The notes beneath the pieces are model-generated. The model was not told the DNA's origin, did no database searches, and saw only the letters and a list, made by a program, of their open reading frames with translations. The translations under genes were made by a program, and so were the position numbers. Of a DNA stretch of 32,964 nucleotides, positions 8,495-30,611 are shown piece by piece. This stretch comes from Planctomycetota bacterium (lineage in GTDB: Bacteria > Planctomycetota > J058). The stretch covers positions 1-32,964 of the forward strand of contig JAESQQ010000152.1 in assembly GCA_016765095.1 (NCBI GenBank). Reading direction: 5' to 3'. Position 1 is the stretch's first letter; each line of letters opens with the position of its first letter.

Positions 8495-10426
8495 CTAACG
8501 CTTGAAGCGCTTGGAGCGTTGCTTCTTCGCCATCTCCTGGAGCTTGCTCGTATCGACTTTTTTCTTGGTCGATTTCTTCCCAGAAGCCTTGCCTCCAAGG
8601 CCCTTGCTCTTCTTGGTGACCTTGGTCTTTCCGCTCTCGCCAGCCTTCTTGGTCGTCTTCTTCTTGCCTGCGACAGGACGCTTACGGGGACGAGCCGGCT
8701 CCTTCTTGCGACCTCCGAAGAGCCGTCCGAAGAAGCCCTTCTTTCCATCGGCGCCTTCGGCCTCGTTGCGACCACTCCCGCCCCGATCGTCGCCTTCGTC
8801 GTCGTCGCCGTCGTCGTCGTCGCCGTCGTCGTCGTCCCTCGCCTTTCGCTTCCCGCTCTTGCTCTTGCCTCGCTTGCTGACGGGAGCTTCTTCGCTCTCG
8901 TCGTCGAGATCGTCCTCATCGTCGTCGAGGTCCTCGTCGCTGTCCTCGAGATCCTCGTCGTCGTCGAGGTCCTCATCGTCCTCGTCGCTGTCCTCGAGAT
9001 CCTCGTCGTCGTCGAGGTCCTCGTCGCTGTCCTCGAGATCCTCGTCGTCGAGATCCTCGTCGTCGAGATCCTCGTCGCTGTCGACCTTGTCCTTGTCCTT
9101 GCTCCTGCTCTTGCTCTTGCCCCGCCTGCTGACAGGGGCTTCTTCGCTCTCGTCGTCGAGATCGTCCTCGTCGAGATCCTCGTCGTCGTCGTCGTCGTCC
9201 TGTTCGGCGGGCGCACTACGGCCGCGTTTGTTCTTGCCCCGCTTGCTGACAGGAGCTTCTTCGCTCTCGTCGGCGTCCTCGAACTCCTCAAGGTCGTCGT
9301 CGTCGTCGTCGTCGTCTGTGTCTAGTTCGAAGCTCTCGTCGTCCTCGGGAGGCGCCGAGGTCTTCGACTTTCGACCGCGACGCGAGTTCTTTTTCGGCTC
9401 CTCGTCTAGGTCGAGGTCCTCGTCTAAGTCGAAATCCCCGTCCAGGTCGAGATCCCCAAGGCCGCTCCCATTGGCGAGATCGGCGAGGTCGTCTTCTTCG
9501 TCTGGGGGCGTGCGGCGCCGACGGCGACTGCTCCGCTTGGAAGCTTCTTCCTCCTCCTCTTGGTCGTCGTCGAGGCCAAGGTCATCGTCGAGGTCGAGGT
9601 CACCGTCGAGGTCGAGGTCACCGTCGAGGTCGAGGTCACCGTCGAGGTCGAGGTCACCATCGAGGCCTTCCCCGTCCTCAAGGGCTAGTTCCTCGTCGCT
9701 CGGCTCGGCCTCCCCACCCTCGGGAGCGGGTCGCGCGTCGAGTTCCTCGCCCTCGTCGAGTTCGCCCAGATCGTCAATGTCGCCGAGCTCGTCGAGGTCA
9801 GCTATGTCAGCGATCCCTGAGAGCTCTTCGAGCTCCTCAAGCGACTGCGGATCGTCGGGGTCGAATCCGTCCTCGACTTCGTTGTGCGAGAGCTCGTCAA
9901 GGCTCCCGAGGTCCTCAAGGTCCTCCGACATTTCCTTGGCGGCCTCGGTTGTCCCCTCGCCCGAGTCACTCTTGGGGCGCTTCTTGCGGCGCCGGGCTCG
10001 GATCCCCTCGATCGCGCGCAGGATCGCGCGGTCCTCCCGCGAGTTTATGTAGCCCTTCTCAAGCAGGATCTTGTTGACCCGCACCAGCGTGCGTTTCTTG
10101 ATGTGGATCCGCTTCTGCTCTCGCAGAGCCTCCTCGACCCACTTCGGTTCGCAGATGTCGCTTTGAGTCGCGATCTTCCCGTAGAACCGATCCGCCTTGC
10201 GGACTAGGTAGTAGATGATCGCGTAGCGAAGCCCTTTGAGCTGCTTGCCCCGCAGGATCCCCATATCGAGGAGTACACGCTCAAGCGACTCCTTCTTTCC
10301 GTCGGTGTCGAGGATCTCTTGCTGTAACGCAAGCGCATCATCGAGCTTGTCCTCCCCCACCATGTTGTGTTTGAGGACGATCCGCGAAACGATGTCATTG
10401 AGCGACTCGACCTGCGGCTGGGCCAC
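8495..10426 (-). CDS. N-terminal helical (MshEN-like) protein with hyperacidic low-complexity middle and Lys/Arg-rich tail
   Basis: 643-aa continuous ORF. Folded-looking first ~165 aa, then D/E-rich blocks with three SEEAPVS(K/R)RGK repeats and a KKTTKKAGESGKTKVTKKSKG-type tail. It starts with an ordered N-terminus and is antisense to only serine/arginine-biased ORFs. Confidence 0.8.
   Translation of the reverse strand: MAQPQVESLNDIVSRIVLKHNMVGEDKLDDALALQQEILDTDGKKESLERVLLDMGILRGKQLKGLRYAIIYYLVRKADRFYGKIATQSDICEPKWVEEALREQKRIHIKKRTLVRVNKILLEKGYINSREDRAILRAIEGIRARRRKKRPKSDSGEGTTEAAKEMSEDLEDLGSLDELSHNEVEDGFDPDDPQSLEELEELSGIADIADLDELGDIDDLGELDEGEELDARPAPEGGEAEPSDEELALEDGEGLDGDLDLDGDLDLDGDLDLDGDLDLDDDLGLDDDQEEEEEASKRSSRRRRRTPPDEEDDLADLANGSGLGDLDLDGDFDLDEDLDLDEEPKKNSRRGRKSKTSAPPEDDESFELDTDDDDDDDDLEEFEDADESEEAPVSKRGKNKRGRSAPAEQDDDDDDEDLDEDDLDDESEEAPVSRRGKSKSRSKDKDKVDSDEDLDDEDLDDEDLEDSDEDLDDDEDLEDSDEDDEDLDDDEDLEDSDEDLDDDEDDLDDESEEAPVSKRGKSKSGKRKARDDDDGDDDDGDDDEGDDRGGSGRNEAEGADGKKGFFGRLFGGRKKEPARPRKRPVAGKKKTTKKAGESGKTKVTKKSKGLGGKASGKKSTKKKVDTSKLQEMAKKQRSKRFKR
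8785..9325 (-). repeat. Low-complexity GAC/GAG (Asp/Glu) coding tract with three interspersed basic-motif repeats
   Basis: Dense cgtcgtcgtcgag runs. A near-identical segment tgctgac(g/a)gg(a/g)gcttcttcgctctcgtc recurs near 8876, 9127 and 9244. Confidence 0.85.
9586..9657 (-). repeat. 18-bp in-frame tandem repeat, 4 copies (encodes LDLDGD)
   Basis: Four consecutive copies of cgtcgaggtcgaggtcac on the + strand, giving GDLDLDGDLDLDGDLDLDGDLDL in the protein. Confidence 0.9.
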
Positions 10427-12897: not shown

Positions 12898-13959
12898 TCA
12901 GCCTGCGCGAGCTAGGCGCTGTGAAGCTCCCAACCCGCGCAGCACCGCTCTAATCTCCTTCGCCATCTTGCCGGCCGACTGGAATCGTCGGTCCGCGTCG
13001 TAGCGCATCGCTTTGTGGCAGAGGCTGATCACGTCTTCTGGGATCAGCATCCGGTTCATGGCCGAGCGGTACTCGCGGTCGAAGCGACCTCGCAAGTCCT
13101 GCATGCTCTCGGGGCACTTTGGAAAGCGCCGGGTCAAGGCCGTGGCCAAGATCAGCCCCAGCGCGTAGATATCCGCTCGCCCGTCGACCTTGTGGCTGTC
13201 GCCCGCGCACTGCTCGGGCGAGCAGTAGCGGAGCGTCCCGACGGCGGTCCCCGAAGCGGTCAACTGCATGTCGACTTCGCCCTTGTCGTGGGCGAGTCCG
13301 AAGTCAGCGAGGCGCGGGTTGAGTTTCTTGTCGAGCAAAATGTTGCTCGGTTTCACGTCGCGGTGCACGATCCCGTGCTGGTGAATGTAGTCGAGCGCGC
13401 TCCCGAGTCGCTCGGCGACCTTGAGTCCTGTCTGCAGCTCGAGGGGCTTCTTGGCGAGGACCTGGTTCAGGGTCTGGCCGTCGATGTACTCCATTGCGAA
13501 GTAGGGTCGGCCTTTGGCCCGGCCGCAGTGCACGACCCGGACCAAATTGGGGTGTTCGAGTCGCTGCAGGATCCGAACTTCGCGCATGAAGCGGGCGACA
13601 GCGTTGCGGTGCCGCTCGACGGCCACTCGGCTGAGGTGCTTGACAGCGACCAACTCGTCCCGCTCGACGTCGAGCGCGAGGTGAATGACGCCTGCCGCTC
13701 CGCGGCCGAGTTCCTGGAGCAGCTTGAAATGGCGGACGCTGTCGTCGTCGCTCAAGATCGCCTCGTTACCCGTCTCTTCTACCACGGAGACCTTGACGCC
13801 GGGAAGCGCGAGCAGAGGAGGAGAGCCCTCTGGAGCACTCGCCCGGGGGTCTTGGTAGCGAGCGGAGAGGGTAGAGTCTCGCGACACTGCCCCCCAGACT
13901 GCGGGTCGTTGGGGGTTGACCGGAGGGACCACGGTGGTGGACGCCAACCTGCATACCAA
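12898..13959 (-). CDS. Ser/Thr protein kinase (start codon uncertain; longest ORF overlaps tyrS start)
   Basis: LGRGAAGVIHLAL, VAVKHL, HRDVKPSNILLD, DFGLA, GTLRYCSPEQCAG, RADIYALGLILA. The true start may lie downstream of 13959. Confidence 0.92.
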   Translation of the reverse strand: MVCRLASTTVVPPVNPQRPAVWGAVSRDSTLSARYQDPRASAPEGSPPLLALPGVKVSVVEETGNEAILSDDDSVRHFKLLQELGRGAAGVIHLALDVERDELVAVKHLSRVAVERHRNAVARFMREVRILQRLEHPNLVRVVHCGRAKGRPYFAMEYIDGQTLNQVLAKKPLELQTGLKVAERLGSALDYIHQHGIVHRDVKPSNILLDKKLNPRLADFGLAHDKGEVDMQLTASGTAVGTLRYCSPEQCAGDSHKVDGRADIYALGLILATALTRRFPKCPESMQDLRGRFDREYRSAMNRMLIPEDVISLCHKAMRYDADRRFQSAGKMAKEIRAVLRGLGASQRLARAG

Positions 13960-15235
13960 CCTGCTCGCGCGCGGCCTGATTCACCAGGTCACTAAGCGCG
14001 AGGACCCCTCCTTCGAAGAACTCCTCCAAGGCGGTCCCACCGTCGTCTACGCCGGATTCGACCCCACCGGTGACAGCCTCCACATTGGCCACCTGGTCCC
14101 ACTCCTCGGCCTGCGCCGCTTTCAGCTCGCCGGGCACAAAGTGATCGCCCTGGCCGGAGGAGCGACCGGGATGGTCGGCGATCCCTCGGGACGGAGCAGT
14201 GAGCGCAACCTCCTGACCGCAGAGGTCCTGGAGCACAACAAGGCCGCGATCAAGACCCAGCTCTCGGCCTTCCTCGACTTCGAAGGCGACAACCCTGCGG
14301 TGTTGGTCGACAATTTGGATTGGACCGCGGAAGTCAGCCTCCTCGACTTCCTGCGCGACGTCGGCAAGCACGCCCGGGTAAACGTCATGATCAAGCGCGA
14401 CTCTGTTCGCGACCGCCTGGAGCGTGACGGCGACGGGCTCAGCTTCACCGAGTTCAGCTACAGCCTGCTCCAGGCCAACGACTTCCTCGCCCTGCACCGG
14501 AGCCACGCCTGCCAGATTCAAATCGGCGGCAGCGATCAGTGGGGCAACATTACCGCCGGTGTGGATCTCGCTCGCAGGAGCGACGACGCAGTCCTGTTCG
14601 GAATGACCGTCCCGCTTTTGACACGGAGCGACGGGAGCAAGTTCGGCAAGACCGCCGGCGGCGAGACCCTCTGGCTCGACCCAGCCCAAACTTCACCCTT
14701 CGAGTTCCGTCAATTCTGGGTCAACCAGGCCGACGCCGACATGGGGCGCCTGCTGCGCTTCTTCAGCTTCCAGTCGATGGCTGAGATCGAGGCCCTCGAG
14801 GCCCAGGCCGCCGAGGCCCCCCACCTCCGCCTGGCGCAGAAGTCTCTTGCCCGCGAAATGACGACCTTGGTCCATGGCGAGGCGACGGCGGACGAAGTCG
14901 AGCGCGCGGCCGCAGTCCTCTTCGATCCCAAGGGAGACCTCCGCGAGGTCCCCGTCGAGATCTTGGCGAATTTCCCCGGCGCCAAGCAAGTGACCCTGAA
15001 ACGAGCTCGCCTCGAGGCCGGCGTCCCCTGGCTCGACCTGGTGGTCGAAGTGGTCTGGGCAGGCGCAAACAAGCGTGGCCAGGCTCGAAAGGACATTCAG
15101 AACAACGCCATGGCCCTCAATGGCACCAAGTGGGCCGACCCCGAGGCGAGCGTCACGGCGAGCGAGCTCCTCCACGATCGGTTCCTCGTCATCCGCAAGG
15201 GCAAGAAGAACCAGTTCCTGGTCGAGGTCGCCTAG
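13916..15235 (+). CDS. tyrS: Tyrosyl-tRNA synthetase
   Basis: YAGFDPTGDSLHIGHL (HIGH), GGATGMVGDPSGRSSER, QIGGSDQWGNITAG, SDGSKFGKT (KMSKS equivalent), C-terminal S4-like region. Start may be TTG 13916 or GTG 13934. Confidence 0.96.
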   Translation: MTGGTTVVDANLHTNLLARGLIHQVTKREDPSFEELLQGGPTVVYAGFDPTGDSLHIGHLVPLLGLRRFQLAGHKVIALAGGATGMVGDPSGRSSERNLLTAEVLEHNKAAIKTQLSAFLDFEGDNPAVLVDNLDWTAEVSLLDFLRDVGKHARVNVMIKRDSVRDRLERDGDGLSFTEFSYSLLQANDFLALHRSHACQIQIGGSDQWGNITAGVDLARRSDDAVLFGMTVPLLTRSDGSKFGKTAGGETLWLDPAQTSPFEFRQFWVNQADADMGRLLRFFSFQSMAEIEALEAQAAEAPHLRLAQKSLAREMTTLVHGEATADEVERAAAVLFDPKGDLREVPVEILANFPGAKQVTLKRARLEAGVPWLDLVVEVVWAGANKRGQARKDIQNNAMALNGTKWADPEASVTASELLHDRFLVIRKGKKNQFLVEVA

Positions 15236-15729: not shown

Positions 15730-15761
15730 AACCCAGGACTACGAGTTTCGGCTCGAGCGCC

Positions 15762-15767
15762 TATACT
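15762..15767 (+). promoter_or_regulatory. Possible -10 element (TATACT) for the tmRNA precursor
   Basis: TATACT lies 39 bp upstream of the mature tmRNA 5' end. No convincing -35. Confidence 0.3.
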
Positions 15768-15805
15768 CAACGCGTCGCCAACTGGGCGGCGGTCTTTCAA
15801 AATTT

Positions 15806-16154
15806 GGGGGCGACAGGCTTCGACCAGGTTGTCGAAGGTCAAGTTGCGTGTCGAGGTGCCGGGTGGCCTCGTTAAACCCCCGGAAAAAACGCAATTGCCA
15901 AACCGCAACTTGCACTCGCAGCTTAATTAAGCTGCCCTCCGCTGAGTCCCCGCCCACGGGACGAGGGTCGGAGGCAACAAGGTGGGCTGGCTCGGATCCC
16001 GCGTCTCGGGGGAAAAGAGCGAGAAAATTCTGAGGCTGTGCCACCAAGGACTGTGTTCTGCAGGGTTCGGGGGCGAGATAAGTTCGCAGAACTACACACG
16101 TAGACGCTTGGTTGGAGAGGCCTTGGGACCCGGGTTCGATTCCCGGCGCTTCCA
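15806..16154 (+). ncRNA. ssrA: Transfer-messenger RNA (tmRNA), one-piece; CCA not encoded
   Basis: 5' GGGGGCG (15806-15812) pairs with 3' CGCTTCC (16147-16153), with G3-U70. T arm GGGTTCGATTCCC. Pseudoknot CGAGG-tg-CCGGG-tgg-CCTCG-ttaaac-CCCGG at 15852-15883. Tag frame GCC AAA CCG CAA CTT GCA CTC GCA GCT TAA. Located directly downstream of smpB. Confidence 0.95.
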
Positions 16155-16161
16155 TTTCCTT

Positions 16162-16204
16162 AACGCCGGAGAGCACTGCACTGCATTGTTCTCCGGCGTT
16201 TTGC
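16162..16204 (+). terminator. Hairpin terminator downstream of ssrA
   Basis: AACGCCGGAGAGCA-ctgcactgcat-TGTTCTCCGGCGTT (14-bp stem, one G-U) followed by a short TT. Lies between convergent genes, so it may act in both directions. Confidence 0.8.
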
Positions 16205-16217
16205 GTTCCGGAGGGCT

Positions 16218-16856
16218 TCAACGTTTCGCGAGCCATATGACGATCGCGACAGAGGCCGGGATCGAGAACAGTAAAGCGGATGGCGCAAGGAACGCGGACA
16301 CCACCACCCCCCCGAGGAGGCACAAACCTGCTCCCACCACGAGATCGACAGTTTGCTGAGAGCGGCGAGCTCCCTCGGTCAATGCGTCCCTGATCTGGCA
16401 ACGAGAGTCCACGCAACCTTCCTCGCGAAGACAGTCGGGGTGGAGGTGCTTCCCGCACCCCTCGCAGCACTGGAGGCTGGTCGCCAGCTCTTCCTCCCCA
16501 CACACGGTGCACTTCGAGCGGGTCCGTTGGAGGAGGGCGATCAGCCCATCGAGTCTCTGGACCTCTCGCTCTTCTCGGCTCGGCGGAAGAGGAGCTGGCT
16601 GCGCTTCTTCCCGGACGACCCGCAACTCTCGGATCGGCGCCACGCCGTAGGCCGGGCACCCCAGCGTGGGGCAGCCGCTGAACTCGATGAAGCACGCATG
16701 GTGGAAGGTGGTCCCGCACGAATCACAACCGCAGCGCTCCCCTTCGAGGCTGTCCCGGCAGAGGGGGCAGATCAGGTCTCCACAGGTCATCTCCCGCCGG
16801 CTCCGGAGGTGAAGGCGCGGCGTTGGCGGGCTTGGTGTGATCGAGGATAGGGCCAA
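16218..16856 (-). CDS. Membrane-anchored tandem zinc-finger (prokaryotic RING-like) protein
   Basis: CPLCRDSLEGERCGCDSCGTTFHHACFIEFSGCPTLGC and CTVCGEEELATSLQCCEGCGKHLHPDCLREEGCVDSRC, followed by a hydrophobic segment VVGAGLCLLGGVVVSAFLAPSALLFSIPASVAIVIWL. Confidence 0.75.
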   Translation of the reverse strand: MALSSITPSPPTPRLHLRSRREMTCGDLICPLCRDSLEGERCGCDSCGTTFHHACFIEFSGCPTLGCPAYGVAPIRELRVVREEAQPAPLPPSREEREVQRLDGLIALLQRTRSKCTVCGEEELATSLQCCEGCGKHLHPDCLREEGCVDSRCQIRDALTEGARRSQQTVDLVVGAGLCLLGGVVVSAFLAPSALLFSIPASVAIVIWLAKR

Positions 16857-17176: not shown

Positions 17177-17862
17177 ATGCGCGGACTCAAGGACAAGGTT
17201 GTGATCGTGACCGGCGCCGGCCGGGGGATTGGCCGCGCAACGGCCCAACGCTTCTGCGAGGAGGGCTCGCGGGTCGTGATCGCCGAGCTGAGCGAAGAGC
17301 TCGGGCAAGGAGCGGCTGAGGAGCTGCGCGCCGAGGGGTTCGAGGCGAGCTTCGTCCAAGTCAACGTCAGCGATCGCGCCAGCGTTCAGGCCATGGTCGG
17401 CGCGGTCAAGGAGCGCTACGGCCAGATCGACGCCCTGATCAACAACGCGGGGATCCTCGCCGACAAAACGTTGCGCAAGCTGACCGACGAGGACTTCGAC
17501 TGCGAGAGCAGGGCTGGGGTGGTGCGATCGTCAATGCGTCTTCGGTCGTCGCCCTCTACGGGAACTTCGGTCAGACCAACTACGTGGCCAGCAAGGCCGG
17601 CGTGATCGGCATGACCCGGGTTTGGGCCCGCGAGCTCGGCCGCAGCAACATTCGCGTCAACGCCGTCGCTCCCGGGTTCATTGAGACCGAGATGACCAAG
17701 CAAATGCCAGCCAAGGTCACCGATATGCTCGTCGCTAAGGTCCCACTCGGGCGCATGGGCAGCGTGGCCGAGGTCGCCGCGCTCTACGCCTTCCTGGTCA
17801 GCGACGACGGGGCCTACGTCTCAGGCGCTACGCTGAGCGTCGACGGCGGCGTCGTCGTCTAG
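17177..17862 (+). pseudogene. SDR/3-oxoacyl-ACP reductase (FabG)-like gene with internal frame-disrupting deletion
   Basis: N-part VVIVTGAGRGIGRATAQRF…INNAGILADKTLRKLTDEDFD and C-part GWGGAIVNASSVVALYGNFGQTNYVASKAGVIGMTRVWARELGRSNIRVNAVAPGFIETEM…SGATLSVDGGVVV lie in different frames joined near 17500-17508. The NLKG region is absent. Confidence 0.85.
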
Positions 17863-17877: not shown

Positions 17878-20199
17878 CTACGCGGATCGCGACAAAAGAG
17901 ACGCCGACCACCCAGACGGTTGGGTGGCGATCTCGTGCCTCCCTTCAAGCGTGAGGCGGCGCCCGCGGGCGGTCAGCCTCACCATCCCGCGCCGAAGCAA
18001 GAAGGGCTCGAACACGCGCTGCACGTTGCGCCGCGACGTGCCCAGCCTGGCCGCCAGGGTCGCGAGGCCCACGGGGCCGGGGCAGTCAATCAGGACCCGC
18101 AGGTAGTCAGCCTCTGACGCGGTGACTCCGCTCGTCGCCATGCGAGTTCGCTTGAAGGCGGCGCTGACGACGTCCGCGTCCACCCGCGAGCTGTCCGCAG
18201 CCCTCGCTTCGTCACAGACCGCCTGCAAGAGCGCGAGCCCCTCCCGCGGCGTATCTCGGGCTGCGGCGGCCACCCCGTCCCGCGCGTCGGAGGTCAGCGT
18301 CAGCCCCTTGGCGATCGCGGCTCGCTCTAGGATCTCCCCCAACACCTGCTGATCGTAGAACTCGAGTCGCTCCTCATAGACGAACCGACTCCTGAGCGGC
18401 TCGGGGAACAGTCCCTCCTCTGTGGTGGCGGCGATCAGGGTGAAGGGAGCGAGGCGAATTCGCAGTGAGCGCTGCTCCATTCCCAACCTCACCGGCAAGT
18501 CGACGTGCCCGCCCTCGAGGGCTTCGTAGAGCACCTCGGAGACCCGTGCCGAGAGCCTGTGGACTTCGTCAAGAAAGAGCACATTGCCTGGGCGGAGCGA
18601 AGTGAGCTGGCGCACGAGCACCGCCGGGTCACGGACCACCGGCGCCATCACCGTCTGAAGGCTTCCCCCGAGCTCGCTCGCGACCGCCCGCGCAATGCTC
18701 GTTTTCCCCAGTCCGGCTGCCCCAAGGAGTAGGAGGTGCCCCAACGGCTCGCCAGCCTTGGTCGCCGATCGGATCGCGACCCGCAGGCTGTTCCGCACCC
18801 GCTCTTGGCCCACTAAGCCGTCAAGACCCTCGCCCAGCCCGAGGGGGGGTCCCGAGGAGGGGCTTGCGTCTGTCGCTAGCGGGCACGGGTCCGCCGTGGG
18901 CGCGATGCCGGGTTCGAAGTTCAGGCTTCCGCTGCGCCTCTCGAAGCTGAACAGGTGGCGGTGCCGACGCCACCAACTCGCGTCCACCACGCGGGGGACG
19001 TCATTGAAACTCACCCGTGTAGCCTCCGGTGAGGCTCCACGTGTAGCCTCCGGAAAGGCTCCAGGTGTAGCCTCCGGAGAGGCTCCAGGTGTAGCCTCCG
19101 GAGCGTCGATCCTCTTCAGGACGTGTTTCTTGGGCTGCTTTCGCTCGCCCAGGTTCTCCCCCTCCGAGTCGAGGAAGACCAGGCTTCCGGCGTCGCCTTG
19201 GAGGATCAGGTATTGGTCGTGCACGAGCGAATGACAGTCCTCGCAAAGCGTGACCAGATTCGCGCGGGTCGTTCGCCCTCCATAGCGCCGCCAGTGAATG
19301 TGGTGGGCGCTTAGATTCCGCGTTGAAGCGCAGCAGACACACTTCCAACCGTCACGGTCGTGGATCTCCAGCCGGAGCGCTTTGCCCGCGGGCGTGTCGC
19401 GATCTTCCTGAGGCACGTACCCCTGGTTGAGGGGATCGAGGTCTGGGTTGGCGGGCTTGAGGGTCAGCGGCTCGCCTGTCAGTTCCCTCACCCCCTTGTG
19501 CGCCATCCACATCAGGAGGTCCTTGTCCGAGACGGGCCCGTCGAATACCCGCTCCTCCATGGCCGTCCGCCAGAGCGACCAGACGGATTCCTCAACGGGG
19601 TTCAGGCGCGCCTGTACCAGTAGCTTGGTGGTGTGTATTCGTCGGCGCTCGGAGTCGGTCGGGAGCTCGCCCTTTTGGTGACGAGCCACCTTCTGTGCGA
19701 CTTCCTTCGCAGTCCGCGTGATCGCCCATTCGCCCCAAACCCGCTCGGTGTTGGGAGTCACGACTCTCGTCAGGGCGCGGACCTGCGAGTAACGAAGCTC
19801 GTCCTCTTCGAACAGGCTGTGGAGCTCTGGAAGATCCTGAAGCGCTCGGCCGACGCGCACGTATTCCTTCAGCGTGGAGGGAGGCATGCGAAGACGCTGG
19901 TTGGCGTACTGAGCGAGCGAAGCGTAGCCCCGCTTCTGGTGGAGGCTCCGGTCTGCTATGTCGGCCAAGTAGAAGGCGGCAACCCGGGCGCCGAGATCGC
20001 CCGCTCGGTGACCTGCCAGGGCACGCCGCTCAGCCTCCTCGGCTGCCAACCCGCCGCAGAGGTCTAGCGAGAGGGTCAGGACCTCCGGTCGGGCCGGCTC
20101 TTGGGGGCGACTCGGGGTTTCGGCTCGCGGCTTCGATTTGAGTGGCGTCATGGTTTCGCTCCTCGGCATGGACCCTGGAGAGGCTACCACCGATCCCAT
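17878..20199 (-). CDS. HNH endonuclease - RuvB-like AAA+ ATPase fusion protein
   Basis: Single 773-aa ORF. HNH: HDRDGWKCVCCASTRNLSAHHIHWRRYGGRTTRANLVTLCEDCHSLVHD. RuvB-like: GLVGQERVRNSLRVAI, GAAGLGKTSIARAVASELGG (Walker A), VLFLDEVHRLSARVSEVLYEALE (Walker B), RIRLAPFTLIAATTEEGLFPEPLRSRF (sensor 1/Arg finger), GPVGLATLAARLGTSRRNVQRVFEPFLLRRGMV (winged helix). The likely start is internal, e.g. MTPLKSKPR. Confidence 0.93.
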   Translation of the reverse strand: MGSVVASPGSMPRSETMTPLKSKPRAETPSRPQEPARPEVLTLSLDLCGGLAAEEAERRALAGHRAGDLGARVAAFYLADIADRSLHQKRGYASLAQYANQRLRMPPSTLKEYVRVGRALQDLPELHSLFEEDELRYSQVRALTRVVTPNTERVWGEWAITRTAKEVAQKVARHQKGELPTDSERRRIHTTKLLVQARLNPVEESVWSLWRTAMEERVFDGPVSDKDLLMWMAHKGVRELTGEPLTLKPANPDLDPLNQGYVPQEDRDTPAGKALRLEIHDRDGWKCVCCASTRNLSAHHIHWRRYGGRTTRANLVTLCEDCHSLVHDQYLILQGDAGSLVFLDSEGENLGERKQPKKHVLKRIDAPEATPGASPEATPGAFPEATRGASPEATRVSFNDVPRVVDASWWRRHRHLFSFERRSGSLNFEPGIAPTADPCPLATDASPSSGPPLGLGEGLDGLVGQERVRNSLRVAIRSATKAGEPLGHLLLLGAAGLGKTSIARAVASELGGSLQTVMAPVVRDPAVLVRQLTSLRPGNVLFLDEVHRLSARVSEVLYEALEGGHVDLPVRLGMEQRSLRIRLAPFTLIAATTEEGLFPEPLRSRFVYEERLEFYDQQVLGEILERAAIAKGLTLTSDARDGVAAAARDTPREGLALLQAVCDEARAADSSRVDADVVSAAFKRTRMATSGVTASEADYLRVLIDCPGPVGLATLAARLGTSRRNVQRVFEPFLLRRGMVRLTARGRRLTLEGRHEIATQPSGWSASLLSRSA
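19017..19103 (-). repeat. 24-bp in-frame tandem repeat, about 3.6 copies, in the HNH-RuvB linker
   Basis: gtgtagcctccggtgaggctccac / gtgtagcctccggaaaggctccag / gtgtagcctccggagaggctccag / gtgtagcctccggag. Encodes PEATPGAS-PEATPGAF-PEATRGAS-PEATR. Confidence 0.95.
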
Positions 20200-28487: not shown

Positions 28488-30611
28488 CTACTTCTTCTCC
28501 TTCTTCTTCTCCTCGGCCTCCTTGATCAGCTCGGCCTGAACCGACGCGGGAACTGGGGCGTACTTCGCGAACTCCATCGTGAAGCTCGCCTTGCCCTGGG
28601 TCGAACTGCGGAGGTCGTTGCTGTAGCCAAACATCTCCTTGAGCGGAACCTCAGCCTCAACCTTGACGTCGCTGCCTTGACTCTCGTTGCCCGAGATCAT
28701 GCCGCGACGCTTGTTGATGCTTCCCAGGATCGCGCCCGAGAACTGCTCCGGGCCCTCGACCTCGACCTTCATGATCGGCTCCATCACGACCGGCTCAGCC
28801 CGCATGTAGACGTCGCGGAAGGCAAACCGGCCTGCCGACTGGAACGCGCGATCCGACGAGTCGACTGCGTGGGACTTACCGTCGTTGAGGACGACCTTGA
28901 CACCCACGACCGGGAACCCAATCAGGAGGCCCTCAGGCGTCGCGAGCTCGAAGCCCTTCCCGACGGAGTTGATGTACTCCTTGGGAACGGAGCCACCCAC
29001 GATCTTGGGCTCGAACAGGAAGGTCGCGTCGCCGTCCAGCTCCTCGTCCGTCATGGGCTCGATCCAGCCGCCGATCTTGGCGTATTGACCCGAGCCACCC
29101 GTCTGCTTCTTGTGGGTGTAGTTGTACTCAGCCCTGACCGTGATCGCTTCGCGATACGCCACCTGCGGCGCGCCGGGAATGACCTCGACTTGATACTCGC
29201 GCTTCATGCGCTCGACGTAGACCTCGAGGTGAAGCTCACCCATTCCGCCAATAATGGTCTCCCCCGACTCCTCGTCGAAGTGGACCTTGAAGGTCGGATC
29301 CTCCTTCGTGAAGCGGTTGAGCGCCTTGGAGAAGTTCGCCTGGTTGGTGTTCTTCTTCGGCGTAATCGCCAAGGTCACGACGGCCTCAGGGACGTGCATC
29401 GAGGTCATCGTCACCGGCTGCCGCCCGTCGGTGAAGGTGTCACCGGACGAGCAGTCGACGCCGAACAGCGCCACGATATCGCCCGCGTAAGCCACGTCGA
29501 TATCGCTCATTTCGTCCGAGTGCATCTGGACAATACGTCCAGCCTTGACCTTCTTCCTGTTCACGGTGTTGTGAATGAAGTCACCCTTATTGAGGGTCCC
29601 GCGATAGACGCGGCAGTAGGTCAGCTGTCCGTATTGGCCGTCTTCGAGCTTGAACGCCAGCATCACGAGGGGCTCCTCGATGTCGCAAACGAGGTTGATC
29701 TCGATGCTCTCGTCGTCGGGGTCGAGGGCGATGTAGTCGCGATCGAGCGGGCTCGGCAGGTAGGCCAGGACCGCGTTCAGCAGGAGCTGGACGCCCTTGT
29801 TTTTGTAGGCCGAGCCGAGGCAGACCGGAGTGATCTTGCGCGCGATCGTGGCCGCTCGCAGGACGGGACCGATCTCCTCCGCGGTGATCTCCTTGCCGTC
29901 CAAGAAGCGCTCGGCGATCGCGTCGTCGATATCGGCGAGGGCTTCGACGAGCTTGGTCCGCTGCTCCTCGACGATGTCCTTCAGGTCTGCGGGGATCTCG
30001 ATCTCTTCGATCGTCTCGCCGTTGTCACCGGAGAAGCTGTAGCACGTTCGCGTCACGAGGTCGATCGAACCCCGGTGGTCGGCCTCGAGGCCGAGCGGGT
30101 GCTGGATCATGACGGAGTTGTGGCCGAGCGCCTCGCGCAGCTGCTCGCAGACGTCGAGCGGGTTCGCGCCCGCGCGGTCGCACTTGTTGACAAACGCCAC
30201 GCAGGGAACGGAGTAGCGACGCATTTGGCGGTCGACGGTGATCGACTGCGACTGAACGCCGCCCACCGCGCACAGGACCAGGACCGCGCCGTCGAGCGAA
30301 CGCAGCGCGCGCTCGACCTCGATCGTGAAGTCGACGTGGCCTGGGGTGTCGATAATGTTGATCGCGTGGCCTTCCCACTCGCAGGAAGTCGCGGCCGACT
30401 GGATCGTGATTCCGCGCTCGCGCTCGAGCTCCATCGAGTCCATCTTCGCGCCCACGCCGTCCTTGCCGCGGACGTCGTGAATGCGGTTGATCATGCCCGT
30501 GTAGAACAGGATCCGCTCGGTGAGCGTCGTCTTGCCCGAGTCAATGTGGGCAGAGATCCCGATGTTGCGGACCTTGGCGCGATCCGGGGCGTTCACAGTT
30601 GTTGCAGTCAT
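28488..30611 (-). CDS. fusA: Translation elongation factor G (DSGKTT subtype)
   Basis: [102 protein letters not shown], full-length 707 aa. Confidence 0.97.

What the first reader, a model, noticed from the sequence alone, without database searches (positions are those of the whole stretch)
17878..20199. HNH endonuclease fused in one ORF to a near-complete RuvB-like AAA+ branch-migration motor
The N-terminal half reads like a DUF222/13E12-type HNH protein, with a helical region containing RYSQVRALTRV and then a canonical HNH at about 19215-19375. The C-terminal ~320 aa (about 17885-18850) keep RuvB landmarks in order: Walker A GLGKTS, Walker B FLDEVHRLS, PFTLIAATT sensor 1, PLRSRF arginine finger and the winged helix GPVGLATLA…VFEPFLLRRG. 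RuvB normally works as a separate hexamer with RuvA and the unrelated nuclease RuvC. A RuvB-type motor carrying its own HNH nuclease suggests a self-contained junction-processing or DNA-targeting machine, for example recombination, restriction/defence or an element-borne resolvase. I do not know whether this architecture has been described.
Basis: partly seen in the sequence, partly recalled or inferred. Interest (0 to 1): 0.82.

Follow-up and report, generated by a model that had tools for sequence, protein, structure and literature searches.

The report
DNA-cutting enzyme fused to RuvB motor
A planctomycete gene joins, in one protein, a DNA-binding domain, a DNA-cutting HNH enzyme and the ring motor that bacteria normally use to slide DNA crossovers; the same fusion recurs in relatives from at least six families, so it is a real and apparently undescribed machine whose job is still unknown.

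Summary
In detail: window 17878-20199 (-) is one 773-aa ORF with an HNH nuclease (res. 287-329) followed by a complete RuvB-family AAA+ motor (459-757). It is not an assembly join. The same fusion is visible in 11 of 392 sampled Planctomycetota genomes from six families. Both halves are under purifying selection, and the fused motors form one clade apart from canonical RuvB. The same genome also has ordinary ruvA, ruvB and ruvC. The ATPase core is intact, but canonical interface and DNA contacts are rewired: Ec R163 is Glu/Asp/His in 13/13. One paralogue lacks the RuvA-docking hairpin, so dependence on RuvA looks unlikely. Copies disperse without conserved neighbours; in one relative an HNH-only ORF has spread to about 20 loci. 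Best reading: an ATP-driven, RuvA-independent HNH endonuclease of a mobile DUF222-like family, acting on duplex or branched DNA; the biological role is open. Holliday-junction resolution is possible but unproven. No description was found in the searched papers.

The parts
17878..20199 (-). 773-aa ORF: ParB-like HTH - HNH - small module - RuvB-family AAA+ motor
19675..20052 (-). helical N-terminal domain, residues 50-175, ParB/Noc-type HTH DNA-binding fold (inferred)
   Evidence: AF2; Foldseek to ParB/Noc/Spo0J DNA-binding domains, prob up to 0.99 but E 0.17 or worse; hhalign 76% / E 2e-5 against ParB with negative controls
19165..19392 (-). HNH nuclease domain, residues 270-345; HH299-300, N314, H323, H327, zinc-type Cys 287/290/319/322
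   Evidence: PF01844; conserved columns
19017..19102 (-). 24-nt tandem repeat coding for the disordered linker (PEATPGAS-like)
18901..19020 (-). small folded module with SWWRRHRHL motif, residues 394-433; conserved in most fused proteins, absent in L192
17929..18825 (-). RuvB-family AAA+ motor, residues 459-757
   Evidence: TM up to 0.91 to solved RuvB
18697..18723 (-). Walker A GAAGLGKTS (K499 = Ec K68)
18559..18585 (-). Walker B VLFLDEVH (D544/E545)
18454..18507 (-). presensor-1 beta-hairpin (RuvA-docking site in canonical RuvB), residues 565-582; sequence diverged
   Evidence: PMC9477746
18418..18420 (-). Glu594 in place of the invariant canonical Arg (Ec R163)
18385..18387 (-). arginine finger R605 (Ec R174)
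17938..18129 (-). winged-helix domain with LTARGR loop (Ec R316 and R318 kept)

Best explanation
A motorised HNH endonuclease. Shown by sequence: one polypeptide with an HNH nuclease with complete catalytic residues, a small W-W-R-R-H module, and a RuvB-family AAA+ ATPase with an intact catalytic core; predicted from structure and profiles: an N-terminal ParB/Noc-like HTH DNA-binding domain. Inferred: it assembles into its own hexameric ring, separate from the cell's canonical RuvB; the HTH places it on duplex or branched DNA; ATP hydrolysis by the ring moves or strains the DNA; and the tethered HNH cuts it, without RuvA or RuvC. Its genomic behaviour (patchy, duplicated, dispersed without neighbours, leaving decayed scraps, with HNH-only relatives multiplying as bare ORFs) fits a free-standing, REP13E12/DUF222-type semi-mobile nuclease gene that acquired a recombination motor. 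The most likely outcome is cleavage at a target site or recombination intermediate that promotes recombination, possibly including its own spread.
For: Domain order and active-site residues. Full-length AF2 model, mean pLDDT 85.5 with the motor at 94 or more per ten-residue block. RuvB fold, TM up to 0.91 to solved RuvB. ParB/Noc HTH: Foldseek prob 0.96-0.99 to several ParB/Noc DNA-binding domains; hhalign 76%, E 2e-5, while reversed and 12 shuffled controls and canonical RuvB give no more than 0.5%. Same fusion in 11 of 392 Planctomycetota genomes. Single clade of fused motors, 93/94. dN/dS about 0.2-0.4 in both functional halves. Canonical RuvA/B/C elsewhere in the genome. One paralogue lacks the RuvA-docking hairpin. 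Canonical inter-subunit and DNA-contact residues replaced (contacts from PMC10272136). Dispersal: two copies each in G096, G233, G128 and G116, similarity confined to or just around the gene; about 20 HNH-only loci in G058, two of which match only over the ORF; scraps in the own genome; no conserved neighbours.
Against: No biochemistry. Two positions linked to a second RuvB DNA-contact site are changed in the family (Ec R117 often Ala, though kept here; R163 acidic or His), so processive dsDNA threading is not assured. The HTH assignment rests on a predicted model with Foldseek E-values of 0.17-0.6. Mobility is inferred from distribution, not seen as an insertion event: no homing site or target duplication was found. 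Fusions outside Planctomycetota could not be properly sampled.
Confidence: 0.5

Rival explanations
1. Self-contained Holliday-junction resolvase: the RuvB ring drives branch migration and the HNH domain replaces RuvC, cutting the crossover.
For: RuvB fold and intact ATPase core; winged-helix arginines largely kept; HNH/His-Me nucleases can act on junctions (T4 endonuclease VII, own knowledge); in M. tuberculosis, putative HNH endonucleases and ruvABC are both in the RecA-dependent damage response (PMC8151990).
Against: No RuvA-like junction binder in the protein; the RuvA-docking hairpin is diverged and deleted in one paralogue; putative second-site DNA contact changed; canonical RuvABC already present; patchy distribution in about 3% of genomes.
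Confidence: 0.2
2. The AAA+ ring is a switch or assembly clamp, not a translocase: ATP state gates the HNH domain, as in other AAA+-nuclease pairs.
For: Charge change at Ec R163 in 13/13, loss of R117 in 10/13 and of the first CTD arginine (Ec R313) in 11 of 12 aligned; acidic trans-sensor residues eroded. A switch needs only the retained ATPase core.
Against: Winged helix with R316/R318 mostly retained argues for continued DNA contact.
Confidence: 0.17
3. An anti-phage or restriction effector in which the motor scans foreign DNA and the HNH destroys it.
For: Motor-plus-nuclease design; patchy distribution; weak McrA-type HNH similarity.
Against: No PADLOC family matched beyond generic AAA or HNH stretches; neighbours in the window are housekeeping-type genes and no partner gene is conserved; no modification gene seen.
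Confidence: 0.1
4. Assembly chimera or pseudogene.
For: Contig of a 987-contig, 84%-complete assembly; degraded copies elsewhere in the genome.
Against: Independent genomes carry the same fusion; purifying selection; open frame and intact catalytic residues.
Confidence: 0.01

Closest known systems
RuvB, Holliday junction branch migration ATPase (PF05496/PF17864/PF05491; TIGR00635)
   Same: Three-domain fold (TM up to 0.91), Walker A/B, sensor 1 Thr-Thr, arginine finger R174, sensor 2 R221, winged helix with R318
   Different: Below both NCBI RuvB equivalog cut-offs; carries HTH and HNH; Ec R163 acidic or His, E123, R215, N224 and mostly E292 replaced; RuvA hairpin diverged; not linked to ruvA/ruvC; separate clade
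DUF222/REP13E12-type HNH endonucleases (PF02720 + PF01844)
   Same: Helical domain with SQVRALTRV-type motif then HNH; multicopy, scrap-leaving behaviour; relatives in the phylum with the same N half and no RuvB
   Different: P0001 itself does not reach PF02720; RuvB motor and W-W-R-R-H module appended
ParB/Noc/Spo0J DNA-binding domain
   Same: N-terminal domain aligns colinearly over 83 columns by profile comparison and structurally to DNA-bound ParB/Noc
   Different: No match to the ParB N-terminal CTPase part; similarity 17% identity
IscB / HNH-Cascade / McrA HNH domains
   Same: HNH module only
   Different: IscB model score 41 bits against a cut-off of 175; no RuvC domain detected
T4 endonuclease VII (own knowledge)
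   Same: Zinc-bearing His-Me nuclease that cuts junctions: precedent for an HNH-like junction nuclease
   Different: No motor; no detected homology here

Membership tests
Canonical RuvB (TIGR00635 / PRK00080 equivalog) | score above the curated equivalog cut-off | tested here: not met
   247.4 vs 299.05 bits and 274.7 vs 282 bits
Canonical RuvB (TIGR00635 / PRK00080 equivalog) | RuvB_N, lid and RuvB_C domains in order with Walker A/B, sensor 1, arginine finger, sensor 2 | tested here: met
   (lid at 26.6 bits against a cut-off of 27)
Canonical RuvB (TIGR00635 / PRK00080 equivalog) | RuvA-binding presensor-1 hairpin conserved | tested here: inconclusive
   hairpin present and hydrophobic but diverged here; deleted in paralogue L192
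Canonical RuvB (TIGR00635 / PRK00080 equivalog) | invariant R163 of the 34 canonical sequences compared | tested here: not met
   E/D/H in 13 of 13 fused proteins, R in 34/34 canonical
Canonical RuvB (TIGR00635 / PRK00080 equivalog) | ATP-driven branch migration with RuvA | not testable with these tools
   needs biochemistry
DUF222 (PF02720) | Pfam DUF222 match above cut-off | tested here: not met
   no hit in P0001; one N-half alignment member 7.6e-5; HNH protein L006 of the same genome 1.8e-18
HNH endonuclease (PF01844) | HNH profile above cut-off with catalytic His/Asn and metal ligands | tested here: met
   29.4 vs 21.4 bits; conserved HH, N, H-x3-H and four Cys
ParB/Noc-type HTH domain | structural and profile similarity over the HTH domain | tested here: met
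   Foldseek prob up to 0.99 but E 0.17; hhalign 76.3%, E 2.2e-5, controls at or below 0.5%; remote, so still a prediction
IscB RNA-guided nuclease | IscB model above cut-off, split RuvC plus HNH | tested here: not met
   41.2 vs 175 bits; no RuvC domain in the Pfam scan
Known anti-phage defence system | match to a PADLOC system protein over its length, with partner genes | tested here: not met
   only partial AAA or HNH stretches; no conserved neighbours

The most novel reading that the evidence does not exclude
A single-protein, RuvA- and RuvC-independent DNA-processing machine in which a site-specific ParB-like HTH loads a dedicated RuvB hexamer and a tethered HNH nuclease cuts the DNA it drives, with the small W-W-R-R-H module docking on the presensor-1 hairpin in place of RuvA domain III (module and hairpin are both missing in paralogue L192); it spreads as a bare gene.
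Probability: 0.25. Interest if true: 0.85.

Novelty: new variant of a known kind. Interest (0 to 1): 0.62.

Why it matters
RuvB is usually treated as a motor that works only through RuvA. A natural family in which the RuvB fold has been coupled covalently to a nuclease and a DNA-binding domain, with the RuvA interface apparently relaxed and interface charges rewired, would be a natural experiment on which parts of the motor are needed for translocation, RuvA control and assembly. It may also help explain what DUF222/REP13E12-type HNH proteins do, a common but largely uncharacterised family.

Tried and rejected
Genome-contig scan with a family alignment: the first alignment was too diverse; the second gave only four Planctomycetota loci, matching genomes already found. 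An integration site at the neighbouring tmRNA was considered and dropped: the last 12-14 nt of the tmRNA are not repeated in the window. Operon context: no conserved neighbour apart from generic kinases. Insertion-boundary mapping against close relatives failed because the neighbouring fabG is intact without the gene next to it and the other neighbour shows no counterpart. Searching other phyla was impossible because no handle for another phylum was available. Promoter scan uninformative. A tree of the HNH halves did not resolve whether HNH-only relatives are ancestral or derived by loss of RuvB. Paper searches for RuvB+HNH, RuvB+Planctomycetes+HNH and RuvB domain fusions gave no description of the architecture; only open-licence papers are held, so absence is weak evidence. 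Whether G096, G233 and G128 keep a canonical RuvB was not resolved, because only the top two candidates per genome were scored in the phylum scans.

Full report
Observation. The ORF at 17878-20199 (-) encodes 773 aa without internal stops. Pfam finds HNH (PF01844, 29.4 bits against a cut-off of 21.4) at residues 287-329, RuvB_N (E 1.4e-43) at 459-612, a lid match just under its cut-off, and RuvB_C at 691-754. NCBIfam RuvB equivalog models score 247 and 275 bits, just under their cut-offs of 299 and 282. PDB sequence search gives RuvB structures at E about 1e-59, and the predicted structure overlays solved RuvB with TM up to 0.91.

Not an artefact. In 392 sampled Planctomycetota genomes a profile of the family separates fused proteins (more than 500 bits when near full length) from canonical RuvB (367 bits or less). 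Fusions with visible RuvB sequence occur in 11 genomes: G000, G118, G164, G116, G200, G233, G222 (RuvB part truncated by a repeat-like join), G096, G128, G305 and G078; a twelfth, G176, is cut by a contig end inside the HNH part. They span six families. In those phylum scans only the top two candidates per genome were scored, so the count is a lower bound. G305 has its N-terminal part in another frame. Between the window protein and its closest homologue dN/dS is about 0.2-0.4 in the folded parts (HNH 0.27/1.17; RuvB_N 0.27/1.05) and higher in the linker; dS is near saturation, so these are rough. The ten fused motor domains tested form one side of a branch with support 93/94, apart from the canonical RuvB of the same genome.

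Host context. The genome is an 8.57 Mb, 987-contig, 84%-complete assembly. It has canonical RuvB (C296, 39% identical to the fused motor), RuvC (C734) and RuvA (C121). The window is ordinary chromosome: tmRNA at 15806-16157, a tyrosyl-tRNA synthetase-like ORF at 13916-15235 and an EF-G-like ORF at 28488-30611 (named by eye from the translations), an ABC transporter, kinase and glycosyltransferase. Closely related public contigs are labelled Planctomycetota.

Anatomy. AF2 on a 42-sequence alignment gives mean pLDDT 85.5: helical domain 50-245, HNH 270-345, disordered linker 354-389, a small folded module 394-433 built around SWWRRHRHL, and the motor 459-757 at 94 or more per ten-residue block. 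A separate model of the N half searched against the PDB puts several ParB, Noc and Spo0J DNA-binding domains among its best matches (prob 0.96-0.99, TM normalised by target up to 0.70, E-values only 0.17-0.6). An independent profile-profile test of the N half against ParB proteins from relatives gives 83 colinear columns, probability 76%, E 2.2e-5; reversed, twelve column-shuffled and canonical-RuvB controls give 0.5% or less. I therefore read the DUF222-like helical domain as a ParB/KorB-type HTH. This is a prediction, not a demonstration.

Motor. Thirteen fused motors were compared with 34 canonical sequences. Kept in all or nearly all: K68, D113, E114, T161, T162, R174 (arginine finger), R221 (sensor 2), Y184, G317, R318 (E. 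coli numbering). Replaced: R163 (E/D/H in 13/13), E123, R215 and N224 (0/13), E292 (1/13), R117 (3/13 keep it, including this protein), R313 (11 of 12 aligned), and the acidic pair E131/D132 is eroded. In the T. thermophilus RuvB-DNA structure the residues equivalent to E131 and D132 and to R163 make inter-protomer salt bridges; R101 (E. coli R117) and a second arginine, given as R104 in the text and Arg147 in the legend (R147 would be E. coli R163), contact DNA; and R297/R300/R302 (R313/R316/R318) form the C-terminal DNA contact (PMC10272136). The residue mapping between species is by constant offset and is mine. In canonical RuvB, RuvA domain III docks on the presensor-1 hairpin (PMC9477746). 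Here the hairpin is present but diverged; in one paralogue (L192) it is deleted together with the W-W-R-R-H module. Inference: the fused motors assemble with themselves and not with canonical RuvB, and do not depend on RuvA.

Behaviour of the gene. No neighbour is conserved. G096, G233, G128 and G116 carry two copies each, similar only over or just around the gene. The window's own genome holds short, decayed pieces of it (116 bp at 100%, 139 bp at 92%, three pieces at 93-97%) at other loci, several near contig ends. In G058, about 20 loci encode the HNH half without RuvB; compared copies are mostly 89-95% identical in DNA over their shared parts, and in the two copies aligned in full the identity covers the ORF and stops close to its ends. 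DUF222/REP13E12 genes are also reported as repetitive in mycobacteria (PMC10589994). In M. tuberculosis five putative HNH endonucleases, not named as DUF222 there, are RecA-dependently induced by mitomycin C, and RuvABC are also induced (PMC8151990). A mycobacterial HNH protein, MSMEG_1275, cleaves chromosomal DNA and needs H258 and N272 (PMC9416677); the H-N spacing of 14 equals H300-N314 here, but its family was not tested.

Mechanism. Shown: domain content, order, conservation and intact catalytic residues. Inferred: the HTH binds duplex DNA, a homohexameric RuvB ring works on it with ATP, and the HNH cuts. Whether the ring translocates, and whether the substrate is a junction, a target site or foreign DNA, is not decided. 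I put most weight on a RuvA-independent, ATP-driven HNH endonuclease belonging to a semi-mobile gene family, with junction resolution and ATP-switch models as the main rivals.

Novelty. No paper found describes HNH joined to RuvB, and plasmid, phage and viral collections showed no fusion. Each part is known; the combination is a new variant, and the RuvA-free motor would be the surprising element if confirmed.

Noticed in passing
window 17177-17862 (+): The fabG-like short-chain dehydrogenase gene next door lacks about 61 bp around 17500 compared with five relatives (intact 274-298 codon frames there), shifting its frame: pseudogene or assembly error.
   Followed up: partly
window 15806-16157 (+): tmRNA gene (tag AKPQLALAA); the long ORF 15739-16719 (-) on the other strand overlaps it, has no Pfam match and is probably not a gene.
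   Followed up: yes
own genome C298:19544-19659, C490:14654-14792, C573:9949-10262 (L045-L047): Short, nearly identical scraps of the fused gene at other loci, several close to contig ends; decayed copies or assembly ends of further copies.
   Followed up: partly
L199, L205, L209, L212, L215, L217, L219, L221, L223, L224 (genome G058): About 20 loci of an HNH gene without RuvB; in L209 versus L219 the 94% identity stops at the ORF ends. Looks like dispersal of a bare ORF; no terminal repeats were searched for.
   Followed up: partly
L192:2304-4589 (-) (genome G116): Fused paralogue that has lost both the RuvA-docking hairpin and the W-W-R-R-H module.
   Followed up: partly
L171:2-3184 (-) (genome G222): The fused gene runs, right after sensor 1, into repeats of an adhesin-like sequence (IDEDAGQQTVSLSGITAG...): gene fusion or assembly join.
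   Followed up: no
window 8495-10426 (-): 643-aa protein with long Asp/Glu-rich repeats (LDGDLDLDGD...).
   Followed up: no
L014 (genome G305): N-terminal and HNH-RuvB parts are in different frames that overlap: sequencing error, decay or frameshift.
   Followed up: no
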